Below the pieces are notes generated by a model, which had not been told where the DNA came from, did not search any database, and was given only the letters and a program-made list of their open reading frames with translations. A program made the position numbers and the translations under genes. DNA of 64,000 bases from Clostridia bacterium (GTDB taxonomy: Bacteria > Bacillota > Clostridia > Oscillospirales > CAG-272). The stretch is taken from NCBI GenBank assembly GCA_017937135.1, contig JAGBEE010000011.1:20664-84663 (forward strand), read 5' to 3'. Positions 17,461 to 42,285 of the stretch are shown in pieces. Every line of letters starts with the position of its first letter. The first letter of the stretch is position 1.

Positions 17461-18249
17461 TTAGTGCTTTTTACTTTCAAAAAATTTAATCACTTCATCG
17501 CTATTATTAATTTGTTTTGTGAGTCCCATTATGTACGCAATACAAACATATAATGTGGTTGTAAAATACCTATACACCACAGGCAATTCATCGTTGCTAA
17601 CAAATGTGCGATCATTAAATTTGTTTATTTGTTTCAAAATAAAATCTGGATGATCCATAATGTTATTACTCTTAGATTCTTCACAATTCTTTTTGATGAA
17701 TTTCAAAACCAAATCCTCAAAATTTTCTATAATGTAGTTTTCAATAGATTTACTATAATTAAAACTCGCCCATTCGCGCCTTTCTTTTTTGTATGAAGAC
17801 AAGTGCGGAGTTTCTATTTTCTCAACCCTCTCAGGCTCTGATAAAATTTCGATGCACGGAGAACTTAACAATAATAGTCCCGATGTTTCATCGTTATATT
17901 TGTTGTACATTTCTTCCAAGTCTTCTTTTAGCGTATGGTCTACATCATAAACAAGAAATATACCAGCAAAATTCTTTTTAAGTTTTACAAAATATCGGTC
18001 AATATCCTCTTCTTGTTTGTTCACCAACAGAAGAAAATCGCGAATTCTGTTTTTTGGTCCTTGAGCAATAATTATATTGTCGCTTTGTTTGGAAAGCTCT
18101 GATACATCCAGTTCAAAAGAATCCTTTTCATCACTTATTTTGATTGGTTCGTGATCTATAACATTAAATTTATATTTTTCGAAAATAGCCTTCAAAATAG
18201 TCGGTTCTGTTTTAGTACCTTCTGTAATTATCAAAAAGTTTTTAGCCAT
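17461..18249 (-). CDS. RloB-like protein (AbiLii-type defence partner)
   Basis: The 262-aa product starts with the family hallmark FLIITEGTKTEPTIL, and FLVYDVDHTLKEDLEEM at about residue 95 places a second acidic motif (DVDH), as in TOPRIM-like RloB nucleases. Later are LLLSSPCIEI and a helical C-terminus. RloB proteins occur next to RloA ATPases in phage-defence loci, including lactococcal AbiL. The start overlaps the end of the ATPase gene by 8 bases, so the two are translated together. Presumably the ATPase senses infection and RloB damages nucleic acid; this is inferred from the family, not seen here. Confidence 0.8.
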   Translation of the reverse strand: MAKNFLIITEGTKTEPTILKAIFEKYKFNVIDHEPIKISDEKDSFELDVSELSKQSDNIIIAQGPKNRIRDFLLLVNKQEEDIDRYFVKLKKNFAGIFLVYDVDHTLKEDLEEMYNKYNDETSGLLLLSSPCIEILSEPERVEKIETPHLSSYKKERREWASFNYSKSIENYIIENFEDLVLKFIKKNCEESKSNNIMDHPDFILKQINKFNDRTFVSNDELPVVYRYFTTTLYVCIAYIMGLTKQINNSDEVIKFFESKKH

Positions 18250-19405
18250 TTTTTATATCCTCATCAAAGAGATTTGCCAAATACATTTTTTCTATGTTAT
18301 TGATTTCTCTAATGTTTGGATAAATATCAGATAATTTTTTGTACGTGGAATAACCATTATTCCAGTTTGCAAAGAAAATTTGATCAGGTCTTAAATGCTG
18401 AAGAATGAAAGTGTTATGAGATGAAAAAATAAGTTGAATATTCTTTTTCCGTGCAGCTTTTATAAAGTCTAATACTGTTAACGGATGAAGAGCATCTTCG
18501 ATTTCATCAATAAATAGCACACCATTTTCTGGCAAAGAAACCAAAACAGAAAGCAACAAACTTTGATTCATCATACCACTAGAAATAAAACTAAATGGTA
18601 GTTGTAATTCTCTTTCCCCTGCTTCTATAACTGCATGATAACTTTTAGTGCCATCTTTTGTAATTTCTGAATAAACATTGTATAGAGGAAATTCTTTATA
18701 TTCTTTAAGTATTTCATTAACTTCTTTCGATTTTTCTACAATTATATCAAGAGAGTCTTTTTCAATAATATCTTTAAAAAGAAAATTCTTTTTAGAAGCA
18801 TCAATAAACGACATGTTGCTTAAAAAGTCAAAACTTTTTATAATATTTGCATCGTCTTGATTTTCTGTAGCTAATTTTCTGATTGTTGGGAAGAGTGTTT
18901 TGTTAATTTTCACTGCATTGTTTTTATAATTGTAATATTCGACTGATCTTTCAAAAATCACATTGCCATCCACCGACAAAGTCTCATTGTTAATCCAACC
19001 AGAAACACATGTTTCTATAAAATATTCATATTGTTTTTGATTAATTTCAAAAAATATTTTTATCGAAGAAACTAATTCGGCAAAATTGTCTTGTGGTGTT
19101 TTCTTCGCTTTTTCTTTATTCTTTTTACTTTCTCTGTTTTTTCTATCGATATAATCTTCTGCGTTTAAATGATTTGGAATAAAGCACGAAAAAGATTTTG
19201 AATCTTCAGTTAATAATATCACAAGACTTGAAACAGCTTCCAAGAAGGAAGATTTACCACTACCATTTGTACCATAAAAGGCAACGGGGTTTACCAACTT
19301 ATCGTTGTAAATCATTTCTTCTAGATATTTGTATTTGTTTTTTTGAAAATCAATGTCACAACTGTCAATAGCATTTATGTTTTTAATTTGAATTCTAGTA
19401 ATCAT
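18242..19405 (-). CDS. RloA-like AAA ATPase (AbiLi-type defence)
   Basis: This 387-aa ATP-binding protein of the SMC/OLD type has an N-terminal strand ITRIQIKNINAIDS, a Walker A FYGTNGSGKSSFLEA (about residues 44-58) and an ABC-like signature FSFISSGMMNQSLLLSVL (about 272-289). The Walker B is GVLFIDEIEDALHPLTVLDF (about 300-319), followed by the H-loop region IFSSHNTFIL. It pairs with RloB in the next gene. The ATG at 19405 has GGAGGG before it; a longer frame would start inside the promoter at 19448-19476. An abortive or nucleolytic anti-phage role is the most likely function. Confidence 0.85.
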   Translation of the reverse strand: MITRIQIKNINAIDSCDIDFQKNKYKYLEEMIYNDKLVNPVAFYGTNGSGKSSFLEAVSSLVILLTEDSKSFSCFIPNHLNAEDYIDRKNRESKKNKEKAKKTPQDNFAELVSSIKIFFEINQKQYEYFIETCVSGWINNETLSVDGNVIFERSVEYYNYKNNAVKINKTLFPTIRKLATENQDDANIIKSFDFLSNMSFIDASKKNFLFKDIIEKDSLDIIVEKSKEVNEILKEYKEFPLYNVYSEITKDGTKSYHAVIEAGERELQLPFSFISSGMMNQSLLLSVLVSLPENGVLFIDEIEDALHPLTVLDFIKAARKKNIQLIFSSHNTFILQHLRPDQIFFANWNNGYSTYKKLSDIYPNIREINNIEKMYLANLFDEDIKNG

Positions 19406-19447
19406 ACTTAACCCTCCATAAAAGCCAACTGTATTTTTTATACACTT

Positions 19448-19476
19448 AGTATACATTATTTTTGCCGGCATTTCAA
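19448..19476 (-). promoter_or_regulatory. Promoter of the rloAB pair
   Basis: TTGAAA (19471-19476), 17 bp, TATACT (19448-19453) on the minus strand, placing transcription start about 35 bases before the chosen ATG. Confidence 0.75.
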
Positions 19477-19572
19477 TAGTTTATTAAAATTTTTATAAAT
19501 TTCTTGTTTTATTATATGTGATTGCAATTACAATATTTATTTTTCACCACAATAAATATCTTGTTTAATCTA

Positions 19573-19602
19573 ATTTTTGCATAAAAAACCGGTACGAGAC
19601 GT
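19573..19602. repeat. CCGGTAC repeat, left copy
   Basis: ATTTTTGCATAAAAAA followed by CCGGTACGAGACG. A near-copy is at 31667-31697, differing by three bases and one A. It lies about 100 bases upstream of the rloAB promoter. Confidence 0.5.
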
Positions 19603-19713
19603 CGTTGTTTTAAAAAATTATTAATCTATTAGTACCACACAGGAAAGCCACAATAAACACACAAAAATTCTGTCAGTTATGTCAGCTCAAAAGTTTTTGT
19701 TTTCATGTTATAA

Positions 19714-26136: not shown

Positions 26137-26979
26137 TTAAGCGTACTTAACGTTAATGTTGATAATTTCCTTAGGACGTACTACCTTGCCGTCGAAAAGG
26201 ATATATCCCTTCACTGCATCGGCAAATGACTTCTCGGGACGATATGCCTCTGTGTGAGTGAGAGGATTTACAAAGGCGATAGCGCGCTTTGTTCTAATCA
26301 TAATGTTATCAATTGCGCCGTCCTCGCTCTTTAAAACGTTGTTTGAGAGCTTAACGGTAACGTTGCCGTACATAGCCACCTTGCCGTTTTTGAGCATCTC
26401 GGAGTTGTTTGTATCCTTGCCAACATAAGCCTGCTTAAAGAGCTTATAAAAGCGTGGGGACACAGTAACTGTAATGCCTGATGCCATGTTTACATCGTTT
26501 TCCTGAAGGGCTTGAATTGCATCATCAAGCACGTCAAGCACGTTATCCTTCGTTACAACGGTCGCGTTAGCGCTTAGTGTCGGAACCTGTGCATCCGTCG
26601 CCATATTTGCAATGTACTTGTCCATTTCGTTGGCCAAGCCCTCTGAGGTTTCAAGCGAAAGCGCGTCCATAAGGCCACCAACAGCTTGAGCCTTGTCAAT
26701 ATCGCCAACCTTGTAGTTAAAGTATCTAATTTGATTGATGTTCAAAATTACCGAGGTGTCCTCAATTTCCTCTGCCTCGTCAATTTCTCCGTTAGCGTTT
26801 TCACGCTCAATTGTTTTAATTGAGGGCTTTCCAACGCCAAGAATATGTACGCTGTCGCCCTTGCTCGCTACAAGTCCCTCATATTGTCTGTTGCAGTCCT
26901 CAACAAAGACGCACGCTCTTTCAAGCTCTCTTTCAATGGTTTCTGCCCAAACAGAGGGGATAAAATTTGAATATGCCAT
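26137..26979 (-). CDS. Phage major capsid protein (P22 coat-like)
   Basis: The 280-aa product would be the main shell subunit of a phage head. The pattern is that of P22-type coat proteins: FIPSVWAETIERELERACVF at the start, GDSVHILGVGKPSIKTIE (about residues 42-59), and INQIRYFNYKVGDIDKAQA with LANEMDKYIANMATDAQVP. Later come VSPRFYKLFKQAY and the final strand GYILFDGKVVRPKEIININV. AAGGAG precedes the ATG. It is the last gene of the head module; no head-tail connector, tail or lysis gene follows. The frame is intact, so the protein can still be made. Confidence 0.85.
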   Translation of the reverse strand: MAYSNFIPSVWAETIERELERACVFVEDCNRQYEGLVASKGDSVHILGVGKPSIKTIERENANGEIDEAEEIEDTSVILNINQIRYFNYKVGDIDKAQAVGGLMDALSLETSEGLANEMDKYIANMATDAQVPTLSANATVVTKDNVLDVLDDAIQALQENDVNMASGITVTVSPRFYKLFKQAYVGKDTNNSEMLKNGKVAMYGNVTVKLSNNVLKSEDGAIDNIMIRTKRAIAFVNPLTHTEAYRPEKSFADAVKGYILFDGKVVRPKEIININVKYA

Positions 26980-27297
26980 AATAAATTCTCCTTAAAGTAA
27001 ATTTGCGGAAATACTTGGAGCAAAATTATGGGAATATATGGAAAATAATACTACTTGCTCTTGTAAATGTGCCACTCAATGGCAAATGGAAGCGCAAAAT
27101 AAGCTGTGCGCTTGCTTTCGCGCTTGTCAAATGAGTGTGCACACGCTGTATTAGTTAAGGCTTGCGGAAATACTTAGCTAATAAAGCAATATATTCACGT
27201 CTATTTGTCAAGGTGATGATAAATAGACTTATGAATAGCTGTTTTTGTTGATTTGTCAATCTTTTTTACTTGCTCAAGGCGTTTGGAAGGCTTGCAA
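26980..27297. other. Gap between capsid and scaffold genes
   Basis: 318 bases with no gene. A short direct repeat, TTGCGGAAATACTT, occurs at about 27002 and about 27163. Phage head genes are usually packed tightly, so a small gene may have been lost here. Confidence 0.4.
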
Positions 27298-27939
27298 TCA
27301 CCATTTTGCTTGACTTTGTCTGATTTTATCGTAATTTTTGCTGATTTGCTCCCTTGACATCCTTAAAACCTGCTCCTTCGTAAAAAAGTCGCTTGATAAC
27401 GGCTCGCTGGAGCTAAGTGAGCCAACGGAGGCTTGCTTGCTCGCTAAGCGCGCAGTCTCTTTTTTTATTGCATCCTCCTCGATTTTTGACTTTAAAGCCA
27501 CATATTCGCTATAAAGAAGCGCAAGAGGGACTCCGTTGCGTCTTGAATTCATAAATAGCTTGAAATTTCTGTCATTTTCAGCCTTTTCCCTTGTCATTCC
27601 GGGAAAAAGAGAAGAAAAGAGTGCATCATCATCACTTTTTGATAAAACGGCAGTATTTTGCGTGGAATTATCAACAAAATTCTCCCTGTTTTGTTGAATT
27701 ACAGACACAGGGTCGCCTGTTTTTAAATTTTCAGTGATATTATTTGATAGATTTTCAACTGAGTCCTGCACAAAATTAGCGCTATTTTCAGCTGCAAAAG
27801 TGGCGATTTCTGTTGAAGCACCTTGATTCATAGGTGAAATATCGCCGTTTGGTGAGCTATTTGGCTGATTTTGACTTAAAACCGTGCCATTAGACTCTGA
27901 AAAGCTGAGATTTTGTAAATTTTCTTGATTATTTATCAT
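27298..27939 (-). CDS. Probable phage scaffold protein
   Basis: The 213-aa product is polar, rich in Asn, Gln, Ser and Glu, with no signal peptide. The C-terminal part is helical and charged (SLFPGMTREKAENDRNFKLF, YVALKSKIEEDAIKKETARL, then a basic REQISKNYDKIRQ end). Scaffold proteins that guide capsid assembly have this composition and lie between portal and capsid genes, as here. The ATG at 27939 has AAAGGA upstream. The identification rests on position and composition, not on a sequence motif. Confidence 0.6.
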   Translation of the reverse strand: MINNQENLQNLSFSESNGTVLSQNQPNSSPNGDISPMNQGASTEIATFAAENSANFVQDSVENLSNNITENLKTGDPVSVIQQNRENFVDNSTQNTAVLSKSDDDALFSSLFPGMTREKAENDRNFKLFMNSRRNGVPLALLYSEYVALKSKIEEDAIKKETARLASKQASVGSLSSSEPLSSDFFTKEQVLRMSREQISKNYDKIRQSQAKW

Positions 27940-27956
27940 AAAATTCCTTTCAAAAA

Positions 27957-29651
27957 TCATTGATTATCGACACAGGGTCGGCTATTTTGACTGTTTTTGT
28001 AAAATTCAAGCTCCTTTTTCAGCTTTTGAATTTCACTATTTTTCTCGGCTTGGATTTGCTTTAAAATTTCACTTTTATTTGTTAGCGCACTCTCTGGATA
28101 AGCCTTAATGTATGTTTCAAGAGATATATTTCCGTTCTTTAAGCACGTGTCAAGAAGATTTATATCAGACGCAAGCGTTGCCTTGCTTCCACCAACAGCC
28201 TCGACTACTACCTCAAAGAGTGAATTTTCATAATCATATGATGAAAAGGTGTCCATAGTGCTTTTTTCGTTGCCATCAATATCCTTATTACTTATTATAA
28301 AGTCTTTTTTGTAAAAGTAATATTTTAAAAACTGTGCAATAACAAGCCCCTGCTTGCGCTTTGCGCTTATAAATGCGTTTCTTAAATCCTCAATTGGCAT
28401 TTGTGCCTGTGCTTGAAGGTAAGCAATTGCAGCGCCTGAAAGATTATTTGAGTAAGCCTCGCCACTCATTACCTCTGATGCACCGGTAACACTTCGAGTA
28501 AGCTCGGTTATTGTGTTAGTGAGGCTCATTGGAACCTCCGAAAGAGCGCTTTCGCTTAATTTTTTGATTCCTTCACCCGTTCCGGAGTAGTCAATAAGTA
28601 TTTGTCCCGGTGTATTTGATATTTTTTGTCCCTTTAACGCATTTGGAAGCGCTAAGTATTTCCCCCAAGCACATTCTTGAGCATTTAACAGGCTCATTGC
28701 AATATTGAAGTTTATTGCCTTTTGATTTGGTATAATTCCCTCAATTTCTGAAAGACCGTAAATTGAGCCCTCGCGCTTTTCATAATACCCTGCCACGATA
28801 GGATAAAGTAGAGTTCTTTTTTGATTTTGTCGGGGGGAGTGTCGATAATTCGCAAATTCACTCTCACCATCCCCTTCTGAAAGGGTATCAATTGAAGAGA
28901 AGCTCGGGACGATTTTGAAGGGCTTATTTATTATGCAATTTTTGGTAGCTCTCTCGCAATAAATCTCACCATTTTCCTTAAAGTATCTTGTTAAAAGAGT
29001 TACCTTTTGCTTGTTTTGCTCGTTTTGCGAGCTGTATTCACTCTCGCCCTCGTCTGATTTTAACTCGCTAAGGTTAATATCGCTATCGGCAATAGCGATA
29101 ACGTCGGTTAATGATTTGCGCGCTGAAATAATTATCCACTTTTGCTTTTGCTCGTCAAGCTCGGCGGGGTTTTCAAAGAAAATATTAAGTGGGTCAATAA
29201 GCTCGCACCTGACTCCACCATCTACCCTGCCATCAATTCCACATGCCTCGCTATCCCAGTAATAGTGATAGAAGTACGAGCCCTTTTTAATTCCGTCGTC
29301 AACAGCGCGTCTGTCGATTTCATTTTGACCAAGCTCCTTTAATACACACTCAGAAAAGGCATTAAACCTCTCTATATTTGTCAAAGGAGAGTAGCTTTTA
29401 TATAAAATCTTAACGGGTGTTGATAAAATAGTAGATTTTTTGTTTCGACAAATCATTTTTACTATGTTTACAACGGGTCTTGGTAGATTTTTAGTGTTTG
29501 GTGTCGGGCTTGGCCACTGTCTGCCCTCATAAAAATCAATAAATGTAGGTATTTTTTCTCTTAAGCCACAATTTACCTGATATTCAACCCCCTCTTGATA
29601 CATATTGTACAGGTGGGTATTTTCTATGCTTTGGCTTTGCCATTGAACCAC
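27957..29651 (-). CDS. Phage portal protein (P22-like)
   Basis: The portal is a ring at one head vertex through which DNA is packaged. The 564-aa product has features of P22-type portals: FIDFYEGRQWPSP and LPRPVVNIVKMICRNKKSTI near the N-terminus, GSYFYHYYWD, CELIDPLNIFFENPAE, then PIVAGYYEKREGSIYGLSEI. In the stem region come PNQKAINFNIAMSLLNAQEC and LNNTITELTRSV-like sequence followed by MSGEAYSNNLSGAAIAYLQA. The C-terminus is a coiled coil (KQIQAEKNSEIQKLKKELEF). It begins inside the preceding 53-aa gene (28-base overlap). The frame is intact and of normal length. Confidence 0.85.
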   Translation of the reverse strand: MVQWQSQSIENTHLYNMYQEGVEYQVNCGLREKIPTFIDFYEGRQWPSPTPNTKNLPRPVVNIVKMICRNKKSTILSTPVKILYKSYSPLTNIERFNAFSECVLKELGQNEIDRRAVDDGIKKGSYFYHYYWDSEACGIDGRVDGGVRCELIDPLNIFFENPAELDEQKQKWIIISARKSLTDVIAIADSDINLSELKSDEGESEYSSQNEQNKQKVTLLTRYFKENGEIYCERATKNCIINKPFKIVPSFSSIDTLSEGDGESEFANYRHSPRQNQKRTLLYPIVAGYYEKREGSIYGLSEIEGIIPNQKAINFNIAMSLLNAQECAWGKYLALPNALKGQKISNTPGQILIDYSGTGEGIKKLSESALSEVPMSLTNTITELTRSVTGASEVMSGEAYSNNLSGAAIAYLQAQAQMPIEDLRNAFISAKRKQGLVIAQFLKYYFYKKDFIISNKDIDGNEKSTMDTFSSYDYENSLFEVVVEAVGGSKATLASDINLLDTCLKNGNISLETYIKAYPESALTNKSEILKQIQAEKNSEIQKLKKELEFYKNSQNSRPCVDNQ

Positions 29652-29785
29652 TCGTCAATCACCTCCTTATATGAAGCCTCGTTTTCGTTACCCGTGTCAT
29701 TCGACACGCTCTTTTCCTTAATTTTGTCCTCTAAGACGCTGATTCTTGCCTCTATTTCGAGGAGTCTTTTTTTAGTAATAAACAT
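29624..29785 (-). CDS. Small coiled-coil protein between terminase and portal (53 aa)
   Basis: The product reads MFITKKRLLEIEARISVLED, then KIKEKSVSNDTGNENE and a C-terminal KEVIDEWFNGKAKA. The first 25 residues have a heptad pattern (I/L/V spacing), so a coiled coil is likely. The ATG lies 2 bases after the terminase stop, with GGAG inside the last terminase codons, so translation is coupled. Its end overlaps the portal start by 28 bases. The tight packing argues that it is a real gene. Function unknown; in other phages small genes at this spot encode head accessory proteins. Confidence 0.65.
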   Translation of the reverse strand: MFITKKRLLEIEARISVLEDKIKEKSVSNDTGNENEASYKEVIDEWFNGKAKA

Positions 29786-29787
29786 TT

Positions 29788-31611
29788 TTACCACTCCATA
29801 AATATTTCTTCCTGCAAGGGAAAATTTGTAAAGTTTTTATCTAAAAAGGAGCATCCTGTGTCGATAATTTCAATTTTATGAGAATAATCAATACCGATAA
29901 AGCGCGCAATTGCACTCGCCATAACTAAGTCGTCATGCGAGCCATTTGCTGCGGCAATTTTGCCATCGGGATGGCGAATAAAGGTGCTCATTTCTAAAAG
30001 CGTTTGCCTGTCGGTTTCAAGCTCTATGCATTCTCTCATTGTCGAAATTAGGTTTGAAATAATAATGGGCCTTGTGATAGACGAGGTAACAAAGCCATAG
30101 AAGCCCTCGGTTTTTTCCTTGAATGAGGAGAGATTTTTGGAAACGTACAGATTTTCATATCCAAGCTCCCTTAAAACGCGCACAGGATGTCGCGAATAGT
30201 TGGTTTCAACGCCGATTAAGGCGTTATTATAGTACCTTCCAAGACAATACAGCTGCTTTGCAAATAGGTCCTCGTCAATTTTTTGCTTATGTAGTGTAGC
30301 TACACAGCGTCCGTTTGTGTTATCAATAACCTTAGCGCAAAAGTAGTCATCGCCAAGTCCTGCAGTATCTGCGCCAATTACGTAGGGCTTTGCTTTTGTC
30401 AGGGAGCCTTCAGCTATTAAATAAGGCTTTTCGACTATTGATATATAGCCACATTCATCCTTTACAAGCTCAATATCGCAGATTTCCTTTTTAAAGGCAA
30501 TAATGCTACCGTTTTCAGCATATTGTGGTACTAATTTCTCATTATATTTGAAATATCCAAGCTCGCTTTTGATATCAAATGTGCTTAAATAGTTAGAAAT
30601 TGCATCCTTATCAAAAACGCAATCGCCACTTGTTACAAATGCCTCCTCGGGTGAACAGGGGTATTCCTGTCTTATAGACGTCTTGTCTATATACGAGAGG
30701 TACTTCTTTGCATACCAAGCAAGCTGCTCCTTGTCAAGACCACGCTTTTTAAGGGCGCAAAGCCTGTTTTTTAACCACGTGTCAGCGTTTTTTAAGTATT
30801 CGAGCTCGTTTGAGCGATATTCGTCGCTTCTATACCATTCATAAAAAAGATTGTGACAAGCACCACTGTCCCAAAGTGTTTTTGCTTCGTTAAAGCCATT
30901 GGCTGTTGTTTCATAAATGCAAAGAGCATCCTTTGTTGCCGCCTCCTGTATAGACTTTTGCAAATCAGCAAGTGAGCATTTAAAAAATGCAACCTCGGAG
31001 TAATGGATAAAGGAAAGAGTTCGGCTTCTTCCTATATTTCCGCTTGCCGAGGCTATACGCCAAGAGGAGTTGAGCTTATCAAAAAACAACTCGTTTACAG
31101 AGTTAAATTTCTCCGTTGGCTTTAATCTCTCTGGCAAGGCATTATACATTACCTTTGCCTTGTCAATAAAAATTGCCTTTGTGTTATCATCTCTGTCAGC
31201 TAAGGTAAAGCCTGAAAAGTTTTTCCTTACTATTGCAAAGCTGAGCTGAATGGCTGTGATAAGGGTGGTAAAGCCCTGCTGTCTTCCCTTGAGCACAAAA
31301 AACGGTTTTTGCCGACCCAGTGTCTCGATTTTAGCAATAAAGTCACGCTGAACAGTGTTGAAAAAGAAGGGAATATTCTTCTTTTCCTTATCTACAATTG
31401 AAAAGCAGCATTCAATTAAAAGATATGGCCTTTGAATAATTTCGTTCCTTAAATTATCGGTATCGAGAATTTTGTCGGCTATTGCTGATGTGATTTGGGC
31501 ATCAAGCTCTAAATCGTGACTTTTTTGCCATAGCTCCCTTCGCTTTCTTATTAAATCGCTAATTGAAATATTTGCATCCCTTGCTTTTACAGAGCACTTT
31601 AAAGTCTTCAT
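29788..31611 (-). CDS. terL: Phage terminase large subunit
   Basis: TerL is the motor and nuclease that packages phage DNA. The 607-aa product has the adenine-binding region NTVQRDFIAK, Walker A VLKGRQQGFTTLITA at about residues 106-120, and the Walker B/catalytic Glu in SFIHYSEVAFF at about 200-210. The ATPase coupling motif is CIYETTANGF at about 231-240. The RNase H-like nuclease has VIGADTAGLGDD (Asp415), IGVETN (Glu469) and SHDDLVMASAIA near residue 565. All catalytic residues are there. The ATG at 31611 is preferred; an upstream TTG at 31662 would add 17 residues and leave AGGAGG inside the gene, so the true start is uncertain. No small terminase subunit was found. Confidence 0.9.
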   Translation of the reverse strand: MKTLKCSVKARDANISISDLIRKRRELWQKSHDLELDAQITSAIADKILDTDNLRNEIIQRPYLLIECCFSIVDKEKKNIPFFFNTVQRDFIAKIETLGRQKPFFVLKGRQQGFTTLITAIQLSFAIVRKNFSGFTLADRDDNTKAIFIDKAKVMYNALPERLKPTEKFNSVNELFFDKLNSSWRIASASGNIGRSRTLSFIHYSEVAFFKCSLADLQKSIQEAATKDALCIYETTANGFNEAKTLWDSGACHNLFYEWYRSDEYRSNELEYLKNADTWLKNRLCALKKRGLDKEQLAWYAKKYLSYIDKTSIRQEYPCSPEEAFVTSGDCVFDKDAISNYLSTFDIKSELGYFKYNEKLVPQYAENGSIIAFKKEICDIELVKDECGYISIVEKPYLIAEGSLTKAKPYVIGADTAGLGDDYFCAKVIDNTNGRCVATLHKQKIDEDLFAKQLYCLGRYYNNALIGVETNYSRHPVRVLRELGYENLYVSKNLSSFKEKTEGFYGFVTSSITRPIIISNLISTMRECIELETDRQTLLEMSTFIRHPDGKIAAANGSHDDLVMASAIARFIGIDYSHKIEIIDTGCSFLDKNFTNFPLQEEIFMEW

Positions 31612-31666
31612 TTTCGCGACTTTGTTTTCCTCCTTTCTTAAATTTGGGTTTTCCCCTTGCAAGTAT

Positions 31667-31697
31667 ATTTTTGCACAAAAAAACCGGTACTGGACGG
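31667..31697. repeat. CCGGTAC repeat, right copy
   Basis: ATTTTTGCACAAAAAAA followed by CCGGTACTGGACG, the near-copy of 19573-19602 in the same orientation. It sits just upstream of the terminase gene. Confidence 0.5.
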
Positions 31698-31744
31698 TAA
31701 AGATTAATAGAATTTACAAATTTTTAAATCGGGGTAATTTTGCC

Positions 31745-35832: not shown

Positions 35833-38800
35833 ATGACAAAAAAATTATTAACATTATTATTCGTACTTATGTTGTCAATAATGCTTGTATTTGCATTTGC
35901 GTCATGTGGTGGAAGCGAAAATCCAAGCGACACAAGCACCGATACAGGCTCACAGGGCACAACGCCAAGCCCTGATGGCGATAAGGGAACAGACGACGGA
36001 AGCGGTGGAAGCGGTGGCACTCCCGACGACGGAGGTCACACTCACTCATATGGTGAATGGGTAACCACTAAGGAAGCTACCTGTACCGAGGCAGGCGAGA
36101 AAAAGCAGACCTGCTCTTGTGGAGATATAAAAACCGAGACTATTGCTGCAAAGGGACATAGCTACGGAGCGTGGGAAAGCATAAAGGATGCAACCTGCAA
36201 CGAATCTGGCGAGAGGAAGAAGAGCTGCCCATGTGGAGATGTTAAGGTAGAAACTGTAAACGCAACAGATATTCATAACTATGTGGATAGAGTGTGTACA
36301 GAGTGTGGCAAAAAGAAGCCAAGCGAGGGCCTTGAATTTGGATTAGTATATGAAACAAACACTTACGAATTACTTGGCTTGGGTACATGCAAGGATACAG
36401 AAATTGTAGTTCCATCAAAGTATGAAAATTTACCTGTAACATCAATAGGCAATTCAGCCTTTTGGAATGCCACGGAGATTACTAGCATAATTATTCCAGA
36501 CAGTATAACCTCATTGGGCGATTGCGTGTTTGAAGGATGCACCTCGTTGATATATAATGAATTGGACAATGGATGCTATTTGGGTAGCGAAACAAATCCT
36601 TATATGGTATTGGTTAAAGCTAAGGATGCTACAATAACCTCATGTACTGTTAGTGATACTGCAAAATTTGTATGTGACTCTGCCTTTAATGGCTGTACAT
36701 TACTTGAAAGCGTAGCTATATCGAGCAGTGTGACGAAGATAGGAAATGCAGCCTTTTTTAACTGTGCAAAGCTAACAAGCATAACGATGCCTGAGGGCGT
36801 AACAGAAATAGGATATAATGCTTTTTATGGATGTACACAGCTGGCAAGCATGACAATACCTAATAGTGTAACAATGATAGGGCAAAGCGCATTTAATAAT
36901 TGTTCTTCATTAAAAACACTTGTAATAGGCAACGGAGTAAAAACAATACCAGGCGCAATTTTAAAAGGCTGTTCAAGCCTTGAGAGCTTAACTATTCCAT
37001 TTGTGGGTGGTAGCGCGAGCGCAACAAATGCTTCAAATAGCACTTTTTTGGGATATATATTTGGAACATCAAGCTATGAAGGCTCTGTAGGTATATATCA
37101 AGAAAATAACGGATATCCATATTCATATTACCATATTCCAAAAACACTTAAGAATGTTGTGGTAACAGGTGGAAGCATTCTTAAAGGAGCCTTTAGTGGC
37201 TGTAAAACACTTGAGAAAATTACCGTGCCTAATGATTTAACTGTATTGGAAGATAAGGTGTTTTATAATTGTGAATCACTTAATACAGTTATAGGACTTG
37301 ATAATTTGACTAAAATAAGTAATTACGCATTTTCTAATTGTCATTTGCTAAGGACCTTTACGATTCCAAAGAGCGTAACAACAATTGGAGAATATGCATT
37401 TAGTGACTGTAAGTCACTCCAAGGCATAACATTACCAGATGGTGTAACAGCAATTGAATCAAACGCATTCTCTAATTGTTCTTCTCTTCAAGAGATAACA
37501 ATACCCAATGGTGTAACAGCAATTGGTTCATATGCGTTCTCTGGTTGTTCGCTGCTTTCAAGGGTAACTATTTCTGATGGAGTAACAAAGATAAATTCAG
37601 GAGCCTTCTCAAATTGCCCTTCTATTACAAGTATAGTAATACCCAAGAGCATTACAACAATTGAAAGCGAGGCGTTTTATAACTGCTACAAGCTTATAGA
37701 GGTATATAACCTATCAAATCTTGACATACAGCTTGGCTCAACGTCAAATGGATATGTAGGATACTATGCTAAGGTAAAGCATACCTCACTTGACGAAGCG
37801 AGCATATTAGATTTTGTTGATGGTTATGTATTTATAACACTTGATCAAGAGGCTTATTTGTTTGGAACTACCTTGATAGACAAGGTCTTATCATTGCCTG
37901 AGTCATATAAGGGCTTAGAATACAAGATTTATCAATATGCATTTTACAATAATGGAAATGTTTCTAAGATAGTTATACCAGCAGGAGTGAAGTCTGTAGG
38001 AAATTATGCATTTGCAGGCCTTGCTAATTTAAGAGAAATCGAATTCAATGCAGTAGCAATGAATGATTTAAGTAGCGGAAACTATGTATTTTATAAGGCT
38101 GGACGAGGAAGTGAGGGAATAACGGTTACGTTTGGAAAGGATGTAACAAGAGTTCCTGCGTATTTGTTCCGTCCATCATCTGCTTCTTATCCTTCCACTG
38201 GAGACACTCCAAATATTATAAATGTAATCTTTGAGGAGGGAAGCGCTTGTGAGGTTATAGCAAGAGATGCATTCCAGGATTGTTATAGCCTTTTGAACGT
38301 ACAAATTCCTAATAGCCTAAAAAAGATAGAAAGCTATGCCTTTTATAACTGTAATTCTATAGAAAAGGTTGATTTTAGTGGAAGCGCAGCTGATTGGTGT
38401 AAGATAACATTTGAATCAAACCCACTAAATCAAGGCGCAGACCTTTATTTTAAGGGCGAGCTTGTAACTGAAATTGTAATACCAGCAGGGGTTGAAAAAA
38501 TACCAGATAACGCATTTTCAGGCTGCACCTCAGTTAAAAAGGTAGTGATATCAAGCGGTGTAAGACAAATAGGGGAAGGTGCGTTTAGTAGCTGTACAGC
38601 GCTTGAGGATGTAACTATATCTGATGATTTATTAATACTTGGTAAATATGCATTTGTTAATTGTCCTTCTTTGAAATACAATGAATATGAAAACGGATAT
38701 TATTTAGGAAACGAAGCAAAATCATATTTGGTATTTATTAAGGCAATTAATACTGACATTACTACCTGTACAATACACGAAACAACGAAGATTGTAGATT

Positions 38801-41800
38801 CAGTGGCGTTTAATAATTGCACTGCTCTTGCCGAGCTGAAAGTCAATGCAGCTGCCATTGTGGATTTACCCAGCGAATACAATGTATTTTATAATGCAGG
38901 AGCAAATGGTATAAAGGTTACGATAGGTAAAAATGTTACCAGAGTACCTAACAACTTCTTCTATAGATCAAATATAATAAGCGTAGAATTTGAAGATGGA
39001 AGCATGTGCAAAAGCATAGGAATAAGTGCCTTCTATAATTGCGAATCACTAAAAGAGGTACATATAAGCGATATAGCAAGCTGGTGTAATATATCATTTG
39101 GTAACTATTATTCAAATCCATTATATTATGCAAAGAATCTATACATAAATAATGAGCTTGTTACTAATCTTGTAATACCAAACACAGTAACAAAGATAAA
39201 AGCTTATGCCTTCTATAATTGCCAATCACTTGCAAGCATAACAATATCCGATAGTGTAGCATCAATAGGAGATGACGCCTTCTGTGGTTGCGCCTCACTT
39301 ACTGAGATAAACTTCAATGCTAAGGCTATGAGTGATTTTAGTAGTTGTGTATTTTCTGGCGCGGGACAAAATGGAAACGGAATAAAGGTAATAATTGGAA
39401 AGAATGTAACAAAAATACCTAAGAATTTATTCTATAGTGATCCTCATGCTTCTTCACATGCACTTAAAATAACAAGCGTAGAATTTGAGGATGGAAGCGT
39501 ATGTAAAAGTATAGGAGAATATGCATTCTATAATTGCCAAACACTTGCAAGCATAACAATGCCTAATAGTGTAGCATCAATAGGAGAATATGCATTCTAT
39601 AGGTGCTTATCGCTAACAAGTATAACAATACCTGATAGTGTAACATCAATAGGAGACTATGCATTTTCAGGTTGCACCTCGCTTGCTGAAATCAACTTCA
39701 ATGCAACAGCAATGGGTGATTTGAGCCGAGATAACAATGTATTTTTTATTGCAGGACAAAGCGCAGGTGGAACAAAGGTAACTATTGGCAAGAATGTAAC
39801 CAAGATTCCTACTTATTTATTTGAAGAAGTAGACTATATAACAAGCGTAGAAGTTGAAGATGGAAGCGTATTAGAAAGTATAGGAAAATATGCGTTCTAT
39901 AGTTGCAAATCGCTAACAAGTATAACAATACCTGATAGCGTAACCTCAATAGGAATATATGCATTCTATGGCTGCAACTCGCTTGTTGAAATCAATTTCA
40001 ATGCAATAGCAATGGATGACTTAAGCTCAGGTAACTATGTATTCTATAATGCAGGAAACGGAATAAAGGTAACAATTGGAAAGAATGTAACAAAAATACC
40101 TGCTTACTTATTCGACCCTTATACCGGTTCTTCGTATTCACCTAATATAACAAGCGTAGTGTTTGAAGAAGGAAACATATGCGAAAGCATAGGAAGAAAT
40201 GCATTTAGCGATTGCCAATATCTCGAGAGTATAACTGGTAATTTAGATAGTGTTGTCTCAATCGGTTATGAAGCTTTTTATAATTGCCCTATTAAAACAA
40301 TACCAGTTGGAGAAAATTTCCTATATTATACAGACAAATTAGGCACAACATATAATAAATATGATTCTGGCAACTATTACGGAACAGAAAGCAATCCATA
40401 TATGATATTGGTAAGCGTTGATTACACAGCGACCACCTGTAAGGTTCACCCCGATACAGTAATTATAAACGACTTGGCATTCCATAGCAAAGCTAATTTG
40501 ACAAGCGTTGTCTTGCCAAATGGACTAAAGGTGTTTAATAGCTCGTTCTACAATGCTACCTCGTTAAGATATAATCAATACGACAATGCATATTATGTTG
40601 GAAGTGAATCAAACCCATATATGGTATTGGTTAAGGCAAAAAATGAAAATATAACCTCTTGCGCAATTCACAAGGATACTAAATTTATAGCTAGATATGC
40701 ATTTGAATGGTGCACGTCGCTTTCAAGCGTGACAATGCCAGAGGGATTAGTGCAAATAGGACAAAGCGCATTCGATAGATGTAGCTCTCTAACAAGTATA
40801 ACTATACCTAGTAGTGTAAAGATAATAGAAATTTTTGCATTCTCTGAATGCGTATCGTTAAAGGAGATTTATTATAATGCCACAGAGCTGATAAGTAGCG
40901 ATAATGATGGCGGTATTTTTTCTCACTATAATTATGAAGATACAAACGAGATTTCGCTTTATATAGGTAAGAATGTAAAGCATATACCTGAGAATTTATT
41001 ATATGATAGTTTGCAAGACTTTGTATCACGATGTTGTGTAGTATCTGTAATATTCGAAGAAGGAAGCGTTTGTGAAAGCATCGGAGCTCATGCATTCCAT
41101 GGATGTGTAGGATTTGAAAGTATTAATCTTCCAAATAGCATTACACATATAGGTGAATATGCGTTTTATGGCTGTTCTACACTTAAAGAGCTAACTCTTC
41201 CAAGTAAATTGACCGAAATAAATGATTATGCATTTTATGGTTGCTCCGCACTTGAAAGCGTAACTATACATAATGGCATAACATCAATAGGAGAAGGGGC
41301 GTTTTCTAATTGCACAGCTCTAAAGAGTGTGGTAATACCGAACAGTGTGACAACCGTAGGAAATTCATTTAGCGGATGTACTTCTCTCCAAAGCTTAACA
41401 ATAGGAGAGGGCGTTGTTTCAATAGGCTCTAATGCATTTTCTAAGTGTACCTCATTGGTTGAAATAAGATACAATGCAATATCTATGAAAGGATTTGATG
41501 AGTATAGCGGATTATTCGCATACTGTGGAATGGATAAAGAGGGAATAAGAGTAATAATAGGAAAGAATGTAAAAATTATACCAGAACGCTTATTCTTTAA
41601 CTATATATATAGTGGCGAATACGATTACTACGGCTCTCCGATACGATCTGTTGACCCGTATATAGTAAGTGTTGAATTTGAGGAAGGCTCTGCTTGCGAG
41701 ACGATAGGTGCATATGCATTCTATTCGTGCGATATGTTAAATGGCTTTGTAATTCCTGACAGCGTAAAAGTAATTAAAGAAAATGCGTTTGCTACCTGTA

Positions 41801-42285
41801 GTGGGCTTACAAGCATTACAATAGGCGCAGGAGTAAAAACAATTGAGGGTATGGCGTTTTATAAATGCGACGCACTTGCTGAAATAAGATACAATGCAGT
41901 TAACATGGACGATTTAAGAGCAGGAAACAATGCATTCTTAATAGGAGCAAAGGCGGAGGAAACAAAGCTAATTGTTGGCAAAAATGTAACAAGAATACCA
42001 GCAAATTTATTTGACTCATATAGCTATGATGGACAAGGAGGCTACGAATGGTGTGAAATCACCATTGTTGAGTTTGAGGAAGGAAGCTTGTGCACTAGCA
42101 TAGGAGAACGTGCATTTGTATATTGTAAAAAACTTGAAAAAGTGGTATTTACAAGTGATATGAAGTGGACGGTGATGGTAAGCATTGAATATGCTTCATA
42201 CGAGATGATAGTAGCTGGAACAGACATTTCTGAGAATGCAAAGCTCCTAAATATTTACACAGGCGAATGGTATCGCGCTGAGTAA
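35833..42285 (+). CDS. Giant BspA-type leucine-rich-repeat lipoprotein (2,150 aa)
   Basis: The protein starts with a lipoprotein signal (lipobox FASC, Cys25), so it should be tethered outside the cell. A Gly/Ser/Asp-rich linker leads to two Cys-rich modules (ATCTEAGEKKQTCSCGD and ATCNESGERKKSCPCGD) and a CTECGKKK end. The rest is LRR_5 repeats of the BspA kind, such as YAFYNCQSLASITISDSVAS. These are interrupted by eight GKNVT/K-IP modules (about 38100-42000), each usually preceded by an EINFNA-type strand, and four YNxYxxxYYxG modules. Family members bind host or plant polymers. AAGGAGAG precedes the ATG. No cell-wall sorting signal is seen at the C-terminus. Confidence 0.88.
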   Translation: MTKKLLTLLFVLMLSIMLVFAFASCGGSENPSDTSTDTGSQGTTPSPDGDKGTDDGSGGSGGTPDDGGHTHSYGEWVTTKEATCTEAGEKKQTCSCGDIKTETIAAKGHSYGAWESIKDATCNESGERKKSCPCGDVKVETVNATDIHNYVDRVCTECGKKKPSEGLEFGLVYETNTYELLGLGTCKDTEIVVPSKYENLPVTSIGNSAFWNATEITSIIIPDSITSLGDCVFEGCTSLIYNELDNGCYLGSETNPYMVLVKAKDATITSCTVSDTAKFVCDSAFNGCTLLESVAISSSVTKIGNAAFFNCAKLTSITMPEGVTEIGYNAFYGCTQLASMTIPNSVTMIGQSAFNNCSSLKTLVIGNGVKTIPGAILKGCSSLESLTIPFVGGSASATNASNSTFLGYIFGTSSYEGSVGIYQENNGYPYSYYHIPKTLKNVVVTGGSILKGAFSGCKTLEKITVPNDLTVLEDKVFYNCESLNTVIGLDNLTKISNYAFSNCHLLRTFTIPKSVTTIGEYAFSDCKSLQGITLPDGVTAIESNAFSNCSSLQEITIPNGVTAIGSYAFSGCSLLSRVTISDGVTKINSGAFSNCPSITSIVIPKSITTIESEAFYNCYKLIEVYNLSNLDIQLGSTSNGYVGYYAKVKHTSLDEASILDFVDGYVFITLDQEAYLFGTTLIDKVLSLPESYKGLEYKIYQYAFYNNGNVSKIVIPAGVKSVGNYAFAGLANLREIEFNAVAMNDLSSGNYVFYKAGRGSEGITVTFGKDVTRVPAYLFRPSSASYPSTGDTPNIINVIFEEGSACEVIARDAFQDCYSLLNVQIPNSLKKIESYAFYNCNSIEKVDFSGSAADWCKITFESNPLNQGADLYFKGELVTEIVIPAGVEKIPDNAFSGCTSVKKVVISSGVRQIGEGAFSSCTALEDVTISDDLLILGKYAFVNCPSLKYNEYENGYYLGNEAKSYLVFIKAINTDITTCTIHETTKIVDSVAFNNCTALAELKVNAAAIVDLPSEYNVFYNAGANGIKVTIGKNVTRVPNNFFYRSNIISVEFEDGSMCKSIGISAFYNCESLKEVHISDIASWCNISFGNYYSNPLYYAKNLYINNELVTNLVIPNTVTKIKAYAFYNCQSLASITISDSVASIGDDAFCGCASLTEINFNAKAMSDFSSCVFSGAGQNGNGIKVIIGKNVTKIPKNLFYSDPHASSHALKITSVEFEDGSVCKSIGEYAFYNCQTLASITMPNSVASIGEYAFYRCLSLTSITIPDSVTSIGDYAFSGCTSLAEINFNATAMGDLSRDNNVFFIAGQSAGGTKVTIGKNVTKIPTYLFEEVDYITSVEVEDGSVLESIGKYAFYSCKSLTSITIPDSVTSIGIYAFYGCNSLVEINFNAIAMDDLSSGNYVFYNAGNGIKVTIGKNVTKIPAYLFDPYTGSSYSPNITSVVFEEGNICESIGRNAFSDCQYLESITGNLDSVVSIGYEAFYNCPIKTIPVGENFLYYTDKLGTTYNKYDSGNYYGTESNPYMILVSVDYTATTCKVHPDTVIINDLAFHSKANLTSVVLPNGLKVFNSSFYNATSLRYNQYDNAYYVGSESNPYMVLVKAKNENITSCAIHKDTKFIARYAFEWCTSLSSVTMPEGLVQIGQSAFDRCSSLTSITIPSSVKIIEIFAFSECVSLKEIYYNATELISSDNDGGIFSHYNYEDTNEISLYIGKNVKHIPENLLYDSLQDFVSRCCVVSVIFEEGSVCESIGAHAFHGCVGFESINLPNSITHIGEYAFYGCSTLKELTLPSKLTEINDYAFYGCSALESVTIHNGITSIGEGAFSNCTALKSVVIPNSVTTVGNSFSGCTSLQSLTIGEGVVSIGSNAFSKCTSLVEIRYNAISMKGFDEYSGLFAYCGMDKEGIRVIIGKNVKIIPERLFFNYIYSGEYDYYGSPIRSVDPYIVSVEFEEGSACETIGAYAFYSCDMLNGFVIPDSVKVIKENAFATCSGLTSITIGAGVKTIEGMAFYKCDALAEIRYNAVNMDDLRAGNNAFLIGAKAEETKLIVGKNVTRIPANLFDSYSYDGQGGYEWCEITIVEFEEGSLCTSIGERAFVYCKKLEKVVFTSDMKWTVMVSIEYASYEMIVAGTDISENAKLLNIYTGEWYRAE

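What the first reader, a model, noticed from the sequence alone, without database searches (positions are those of the whole stretch)
26137..31611. Phage head module without tail, lysis or integrase, next to noc-parAB
Large terminase, a coupled 53-aa gene, portal, scaffold-like and P22-type capsid genes are all intact and in phage order, but nothing else of a phage is present on either side. All catalytic residues of the terminase are kept. Possible readings: a decayed prophage, a satellite that makes its own heads and borrows tails (as known for capsid-forming phage-inducible islands), or a domesticated capsid used for DNA or cargo transfer. Intact frames without tail genes are unusual for simple decay.
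Basis: partly seen in the sequence, partly recalled or inferred. Interest (0 to 1): 0.75.

Follow-up and report, generated by a model that had tools for sequence, protein, structure and literature searches.

The report
Split gene transfer agent, head locus
The phage head genes next to noc look like half of a particle-making system that these gut bacteria have kept: the tail genes and likely control genes lie elsewhere in the same genome, which fits a gene transfer agent that packs and may share the cell's own DNA.

Summary
The five head genes are real, and no tail or integrase gene was recognised beside them. At genome level they are not tail-less. Profiles of related phages' tail genes find an unlinked operon (TerS-like, adaptor, tail hub, fibres, membrane-type proteins) in all 16 genomes with this locus, plus one lacking its noc region (29 genus genomes searched). 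Its order is the phage order with the head block removed. Both operons begin with the same 41-bp element, probably the phage late promoter; its operator differs between species but matches within a genome (mean Hamming 4.9 versus 13.9; 0 of 100,000 shuffles as low, not corrected for relatedness). A phage late-activator homologue lies elsewhere in 21 of 23 genomes with such clusters and 0 of 6 others; in 11 it adjoins a CI-like repressor, 9 with an apparent self-cleavage site. Capsid dN/dS is 0.012 in the one close pair. Integrase prophages of the same family exist at other loci. Best reading: a vertically inherited, short-tailed gene transfer agent dispersed over three loci, comparable to FpGTA of Faecalibacterium (2026). 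Particles, packaged DNA, lysis and transfer were not tested; some tree and distance tests were weak or negative.

The parts
31666..31706 (-). 41-bp promoter element of the head operon: direct repeat TACCGTCCAGTACCG where a -35 would be, then an extended -10-like stretch
   Evidence: Score 45.2 bits (it is among the training sequences; best of 20 shuffled 64-kb sequences 12.8); same element before locus 2
29788..31611 (-). terminase large subunit (607 aa; start uncertain)
   Evidence: phrog_2 2.6e-21; homologues in 24 of 57 relatives
29624..29794 (-). small phage-family gene overlapping the TerL end (56 aa from GTG, 53 from ATG)
   Evidence: Aligns with copies in other noc loci and in full clusters, shared C-terminal pattern; no firm family hit
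27957..29651 (-). P22-type portal protein (564 aa)
   Evidence: PF16510 4e-8, phrog_156 8e-31
27298..27960 (-). scaffold-like protein (220 aa), named by position
   Evidence: No family hit; homologous ORF at the same place in other loci
26137..26979 (-). major capsid protein (280 aa)
   Evidence: phrog_267 4e-38; 22 of 29 genus genomes have a homologue

Best explanation
The window holds the head operon of a domesticated short-tailed phage that works as a gene transfer agent (GTA) with its genes dispersed over at least three loci. In this genome locus 2 (contig C22) has a TerS-like protein without the HTH-like N-terminus of prophage TerS, an adaptor, a tail hub, fibre-type proteins and three membrane-type proteins. 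Locus 3 (contig C4) has a phage late-activator homologue next to a CI-like repressor that looks self-cleaving. Proposed course: stress makes the repressor cleave itself; the activator is made and switches on the same late promoter at both structural operons; heads, terminase and tails assemble; without a sequence-specific TerS, host DNA is packaged by headful; lysis releases particles that deliver DNA to kin. Shown by sequence: both structural operons and their joint presence, the shared promoter element, the activator homologue, conservation and purifying selection of head genes. Inferred: that the activator binds this promoter, SOS control, packaging of host DNA, lysis, delivery.
For: Same locus in 16 of 29 genus genomes, 15 with at least one conserved flank on the contig. 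Portal full length in 17 of 17 and capsid in 15 of 15 copies not cut by contig ends; dN/dS 0.012-0.27 in the one close pair. Unlinked adaptor+hub operon in 16 of 16, before a transketolase-like gene pair in 12 of 13 loci that run that far; Fisher p 2.5e-7 for co-occurrence. Shared, within-genome matching promoter element. Late-activator homologue in 21 of 23 cluster genomes and 0 of 6 others (Fisher p 6e-5). Portal, TerL and hub distances follow those of a flanking host gene (rho 0.63, 0.66, 0.54).
Against: No particle, packaged DNA or transfer data. No lysis gene recognised. The TerL tree does not give one noc-locus clade. Capsid distances do not follow the flanking gene (rho 0.18, 163 of 1000 permutations as high) or hub (0.16, 116 of 1000), and activator distances do not follow portal (0.02). 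TerL is broken in G014 and lacks a usual start codon at the expected place in some species. G026 and G017 show no clear activator. The promoter shuffle ignores relatedness. All genomes are draft MAGs.
Confidence: 0.75

Rival explanations
1. A domesticated PBSX-like particle: heads with host DNA and short tails are made, but they kill related cells and inject no DNA. Toxin-like genes behind the same promoter in some species would add to the killing.
For: RHS-repeat proteins (G019, G003) and a barnase-like/barstar pair (G010, apparent homologues in G025) lie behind the promoter element. PMC12946183 leaves this same option open for FpGTA (section 10).
Against: TerL, portal and packaging genes are kept under purifying selection, though PBSX too packages DNA (section 10). 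The toxin-like genes were seen in few genomes.
Confidence: 0.13
2. A decayed prophage whose pieces were scattered by rearrangement.
For: TerL of G014 is broken; TerL starts are non-canonical or uncertain in some species.
Against: Portal and capsid open in every copy not cut by contig ends while pS among noc-locus copies is near saturation and capsid identity stays at 0.84; matching promoters at two loci.
Confidence: 0.03
3. A capsid-forming satellite (cf-PICI-like) or a phage still mobile in pieces, using helper tails.
For: Related integrase prophages live in some of the same genomes (G001, G005, G019).
Against: No integrase at the locus, fixed place in the genus, own tail operon at a second fixed place.
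Confidence: 0.04
4. Domesticated head proteins that block infecting relatives of the same phage family (interference), not DNA transfer.
For: Relatives of the parent phage infect the genus.
Against: Interference would not need a whole conserved head set, a tail operon and shared late control.
Confidence: 0.05

Closest known systems
FpGTA of Faecalibacterium (Borodovich et al. 2026, PMC12946183; abstract, passages and sections 9, 10, 26 read)
   Same: Gram-positive anaerobic gut Clostridia; short-tailed-phage type genes; TerS without obvious DNA-binding domain; TerL, portal, scaffold, capsid; genes in two separate operons; no replication or integrase genes.
   Different: FpGTA I holds TerS together with the head genes and FpGTA II holds baseplate, fibre, holin and endolysin; here TerS-like goes with the tail genes and I recognised no lysis gene. 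Control by a shared promoter and activator is not described in the sections read. Sequence homology could not be tested (sequences not held).
CcGTA/RcGTA of Alphaproteobacteria (PMC11150451, abstract and outline only; rest recalled)
   Same: Structural cluster plus accessory genes elsewhere, switched on by dedicated activators of phage-like origin.
   Different: Different phage ancestor (long-tailed, recalled) and activators; the structural genes are mainly one 14-kb cluster in Caulobacter.
Temperate phages of the same family (G005:C8 prophage; IMG/VR L111 and others)
   Same: Same gene order TerS-TerL-small gene-portal-scaffold-capsid-adaptor-hub-fibres-membrane proteins; capsid 83-84% identical to the window's; some phages carry a like promoter just behind a late-activator gene.
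   Different: G005:C8 has integrase, replisome organiser, an IrrE-like gene and further virion genes; it lacks the promoter element before TerS.
PBSX of Bacillus subtilis (from section 10 of PMC12946183 and recall)
   Same: Chromosomal phage-derived particle with host DNA.
   Different: Does not inject DNA; not shown to be split in this way.

Membership tests
Gene transfer agent | Derived from a tailed phage: terminase, portal, capsid and tail genes | tested here: met
   Locus 1 and locus 2 genes homologous to one phage family, same order
Gene transfer agent | No integrase or autonomous replication genes at the structural loci; fixed in the host lineage | tested here: met
   Host genes flank locus 1 and, in 12 of 13 loci, follow locus 2; none recognised inside. 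ORF maps, not every ORF family-searched
Gene transfer agent | Genes dispersed over the genome, selection for function | tested here: met
   Three contigs in G000; dN/dS below 0.3 for four head genes in one pair
Gene transfer agent | Particles package mostly random host DNA | not testable with these tools
   Needs particle DNA sequencing
Gene transfer agent | DNA delivered to recipient cells | not testable with these tools
   Needs a transfer test in an isolate
FpGTA-type GTA | Sequence homology of capsid and portal to FpGTA | not testable with these tools
FpGTA-type GTA | TerS lacking a DNA-binding domain | tested here: inconclusive
   TerS-like protein lacks the HTH-like N-terminus of prophage TerS; that it is TerS rests on place and a C-terminal motif; its PHROG is of unknown function
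FpGTA-type GTA | Lysis genes in the second operon | tested here: inconclusive
   No holin or endolysin hit; membrane-type proteins without clear family
Prophage | Integrase and early genes next to the structural genes | tested here: not met
   None recognised around locus 1 in 16 genomes; present in G005:C8, another locus
Capsid-forming PICI | Mobile island with integrase; tails taken from a helper | tested here: not met
   No integrase, fixed place, own tail operon

The most novel reading that the evidence does not exclude
An SOS-switched GTA regulon in which one phage late activator drives, from species-specific operators scattered over the chromosome, the head operon, the tail operon, a phage-type replication initiator that may amplify host DNA before packaging, and in some species toxin-immunity genes, so that one response both shares DNA with kin and kills non-kin.
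Probability: 0.25. Interest if true: 0.92.

Novelty: new variant of a known kind. Interest (0 to 1): 0.8.

Why it matters
Few GTAs are known outside Alphaproteobacteria, and PMC12946183 presents FpGTA as the first podovirus-like one. Here a genus of uncultured ruminant-gut Clostridia seems to carry such a system in up to 23 of 29 species, in split and unsplit forms and beside related integrase prophages, so the steps from phage to GTA can be compared: loss of integrase and early genes, removal of the head block from between TerS and adaptor, and one copy of the late promoter at each operon. The shared operator gives a sequence signature for finding dispersed GTA genes that searches for single clusters miss. 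It also shows why apparently tail-less head modules should be checked genome-wide before they are called remnants or satellites.

Tried and rejected
Considered and set aside: head-only domestication (a tail operon was found elsewhere); cf-PICI-like satellite; simple decay. The carbon-content difference reported for alphaproteobacterial GTAs against viruses (idea from the abstract start of PMC7360931 in the listing) was not consistent here: capsid 4.84 against 4.90 and TerL 5.16 against 5.20 carbons per residue (split clusters against phages), portal 5.03 against 4.94, adaptor and hub about equal. An empty insertion site could not be defined: in genomes without the locus both flanks have other neighbours. 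The TerL tree needs two changes for the noc-locus rows; the portal tree (quick search) needs one; the capsid tree did not finish. One domestication or several is unresolved: the activator stands near a YbaK-like gene (name recalled) in 13 loci and near other genes in the L054-L057 type genomes. A class-wide capsid search hit 17 of 391 genomes, G000 included, in 13 of 223 genera; I mapped 15 of those loci (not G000 again, not G320) and could not tell prophages from GTAs there.

Limits of the counts: my ORF caller is mechanical and misses or mis-starts genes; the small gene was not called in L043, L044, L046, L058 and L060. The clusters L054-L057 run into contig ends beyond the hub, so an integrase there is not excluded; they are counted as GTA-type because of the promoter. 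G028's contig ends before the membrane genes. The promoter model of 28 sequences left out the L059 row (no site in the stretch taken), the low-scoring G014 locus-1 site, the G017 and G026 pairs, two L054-type copies and duplicates. The pairing test used 14 genomes: G005 had no locus-2 row, G006 no locus-1 site in the stretch taken (a site further up is listed), and the G008-like contig of G017 (L044) was dropped. Short partial matches to the promoter model also occur in cluster-free genomes (best G009, E 1.6e-4).
Full report
OBSERVATION. The five ORFs stand on the minus strand at 26137-31611 in phage order. Portal, capsid and TerL have significant family matches; the scaffold-like and small ORFs do not. 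Downstream lie noc, parA and parB (Pfam ParB/ParA domains); upstream, divergently, genes that I read as ACT and UPF0210 (names recalled). The genome is a 1.85-Mb assembly in 42 contigs, and the module occurs once.

SAME LOCUS IN THE GENUS. A TerL search hit 24 of 57 relatives, own genome included, and a capsid search 22 of 29 genus genomes. Gene maps show two settings. One is the noc locus: noc-capsid-scaffold-portal-small gene-TerL-ACT-UPF0210 without tail genes, in 16 genomes (G000-G006, G008, G010, G012-G014, G017, G019, G025, G026); 15 have at least one of the two flanks on the same contig, and G002's contigs end. The other is full clusters with TerS before TerL and adaptor and hub after the capsid. 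Named records of such MAGs come mostly from deer, goat and sheep gut and are titled Clostridia or Oscillospiraceae bacterium. Genomes without the locus have noc and UPF0210 in other neighbourhoods; G023 has no noc hit. G017 holds two noc loci; contig C31 looks like a G008-like contaminant.

SELECTION. Among noc-locus copies the median amino-acid identity is 0.84 for capsid (a metX-like flanking gene: 0.84), 0.64 TerL, 0.59 portal and 0.30 scaffold-like, with pS 0.68-0.78, near saturation. In the only close pair (G008 and the G008-like contig of G017) dN/dS is 0.012 for capsid, 0.076 portal, 0.226 TerL and 0.271 scaffold-like. Of copies not cut by contig ends, portal is full length in 17 of 17 and capsid in 15 of 15. 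TerL is open in 14 of 15; the exception is G014, on a contig whose record title gives coverage 1.86. Two of the 14 (G019, G002) have no ATG, GTG or TTG at the expected start. Five TerL motif patterns are found in 15, 17, 16, 17 and 13 of 19 noc-locus pieces; four pieces are cut by contig ends, the rest are substitutions. In the portal tree the 17 noc-locus rows are one side of a branch (SH-aLRT 93, quick tree); in the TerL tree they are not, since L054-L057 nest within them.

THE TAIL IS ELSEWHERE. Profiles of the adaptor and hub of the full clusters find an unlinked pair in every genome with the noc locus and in G023: 17 of 29 genomes; the G014 hub match has one stop inside, and in four genomes the hub matched in pieces or in part. 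In G000 the pair lies at C22:1210-4454. The operon there runs TerS-like, adaptor, hub, c15, fibre, a 91-aa gene and three membrane-type proteins, to 9432 (roles by homology to the phage order and by eye). A split transketolase-like pair (name recalled) follows in 12 of the 13 loci that run past the last membrane gene; G006 is the exception. This is the phage order with TerL-to-capsid taken out. G015 holds the same set unsplit, from a TerS-like gene of the same kind (c40) to the last membrane gene, with a BspA-type and a DHHA1-domain gene beyond; G028 agrees as far as its contig runs. The TerS-like protein lacks the HTH-like N-terminus of prophage TerS but shares the C-terminal KFEDF/L; its PHROG has no known function. 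A profile of prophage-type TerS hits 8 of 29 genomes: seven in full clusters, and one short weak hit in G003. G007 has a weak hub hit in another setting.

CONTROL PROPHAGE. The cluster of G005:C8 continues into a 2345-aa protein, a replisome organiser, an IrrE-like gene and a phage integrase. IMG/VR contigs with the same order exist; one, L110, matches the G014 noc locus.

SHARED PROMOTER ELEMENT. Upstream of TerL at locus 1 and of the TerS-like gene at locus 2 lies a 41-bp element: a direct repeat (consensus TACCG...TACCG) where a -35 would be, then TGCAATAAT, an extended -10-like stretch (promoter reading by eye). The repeat differs between species and is shared within a genome: mean Hamming distance 4.86 within against 13.88 between 14 genomes; 0 of 100,000 shuffles as low; own partner nearest in 10 of 14. 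The shuffle does not correct for relatedness. In G000 the operator TACCGTCCAGTACCG stands at three places, each with 0 mismatches, in a search that allowed two; the reversed control pattern hit once. The third place is before a nagA-like gene, with metG-, tatD- and cwlD-like genes behind (names recalled). The element also stands before the unsplit clusters of G015 and G028 (50.7 bits) and L054-L057 (35-45), not before L033, L034, L035 and L045 (below 0), and weakly before L052 and L053 (11-15). In six phage or prophage loci of other genomes (L213, L115, L119, L215, L219, L220; 15-36 bits) it begins 16-19 bases after the end of a regulator-like gene. So it is most likely the ancestral late promoter. 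Counting promoter-bearing clusters, 23 of 29 genomes carry one: 17 split (G023 by locus 2 only), G015 and G028, and four with L054-L057, whose far ends are not assembled.

REGULATOR. Ten phage genes of 130-169 aa align; nine lie shortly upstream of TerS or TerL, the one of G005:C8 does not. The G000 homologue and two phage copies match phrog_36 and phrog_248, transcription regulators. The profile finds a full-length unlinked homologue at E below 1e-20 in 21 of the 23 cluster genomes and in 0 of the other 6, where short hits of 4e-6 or weaker occur (Fisher p 6e-5). G017 (53% complete) has none; the weak hit of G026 stands among genes shared with prophage loci. In 11 genomes the gene stands beside a CI-like repressor; in G000 it has S24-peptidase and HTH domains. 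An ACG cleavage-like site, serine and lysine are kept in 9 of the 11, not in G015 and G028 (residue roles recalled). In the other genomes with the activator no such repressor was found within the 1.5 kb fetched on each side. That the activator binds the element, and that SOS controls it, is inference.

DO THE PARTS SHARE A HISTORY? Rank correlations of protein distances (1000 permutations each): portal, TerL and hub against the flanking OAHS gene 0.63, 0.66, 0.54 (0, 1 and 2 as high); TerL against UPF0210 0.69 (1); portal and TerL against hub 0.36 (1) and 0.30 (24); activator against hub 0.58 (0) and OAHS 0.51 (30). Not supported: capsid against OAHS 0.18 (163), capsid against hub 0.16 (116), activator against portal 0.02 (459). 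Hub and adaptor diverge fast (median identity 0.27 and 0.29).

FURTHER GENES BEHIND THE ELEMENT. The promoter model was run on 29 genomes, and I fetched 39 loci at further sites. In 19 of the 39, from 13 genomes, a gene of one loosely linked group lies there; all four members run against PHROGs match phage replication-initiation, primosomal or replisome-organiser families. RHS-repeat-group proteins (two in G019, one of them run against Pfam; one in G003) and a barnase-like/barstar pair (G010 by Pfam; apparent homologues in G025) also lie there. These links rest on position alone.

COMPARISON. FpGTA of Faecalibacterium (PMC12946183; abstract, passages, sections 9, 10, 26 read) is the nearest described system: podovirus-like, two operons, TerS without obvious DNA-binding domain, particles of about 40 nm, DNA of about 9 kb. 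It differs in how the genes are split and in its lysis genes; homology could not be tested. Activation of a GTA cluster by dedicated activators is described for CcGTA (PMC11150451, abstract). Searches for 'gene transfer agent' with Clostridia, with Bacillota, with rumen, with run-off replication, with podovirus, and of 'gene transfer agents' with Firmicutes and domesticated prophage (listings only apart from the two papers named) showed no report of this system; several listings were cut, and the library lacks most subscription journals and preprints.

VERDICT. The head module is best read as one of three loci of a domesticated short-tailed GTA. Domestication, the second structural locus and the shared promoter element are well supported by sequence; control by the activator and repressor is likely; particle production, packaging of host DNA and transfer are inferred.

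Noticed in passing
window 19571-19611 (-), before 18242-19471 and 17461-18249: A weaker promoter-like element (20.9 bits) precedes an AAA_21 ATPase gene and a RloB-like gene, a defence-type pair; the same place in G019 scores 17.5, and in G023 a homologous pair stands behind a strong site (44 bits).
   Followed up: partly
G000:C31:109396-109414 (L293): Third exact operator copy in this genome, before nagA-, metG-, tatD- and cwlD-like genes (names recalled); the cwlD-like amidase might matter for lysis.
   Followed up: partly
L308:4915-5873 (G010), L301:233-1113 (G025), L276, L277 (G019), L285 (G003): Barnase-like/barstar pair and RHS-repeat proteins directly or closely behind the promoter element.
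   Followed up: partly
L278, L287, L290-L292, L295, L298-L300, L304-L306, L311 and others: A variable phage-type replication-initiation gene behind the element in 19 of 39 fetched loci, with up to three such loci per genome.
   Followed up: partly
L032, L038, L043, L047 TerL starts: TerL in several noc loci has no ATG, GTG or TTG at the usual distance from the ribosome-binding site; ATA or ATC stands there.
   Followed up: partly
L033:7600-7968: Prophage gene between scaffold and capsid with an Acb2/Tad1 hairpin domain, an anti-defence type; not found in the noc loci.
   Followed up: no
window 35833-42285 (+): A 2150-aa secreted-looking protein with repeats that read like BspA-type leucine-rich repeats (by eye); homologues lie near the locus in other genomes.
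   Followed up: no
G017 contigs C31, C13, C60: The MAG mixes two organisms: C31 is near-identical to G008, while C13 and C60 share their own promoter variant.
   Followed up: partly
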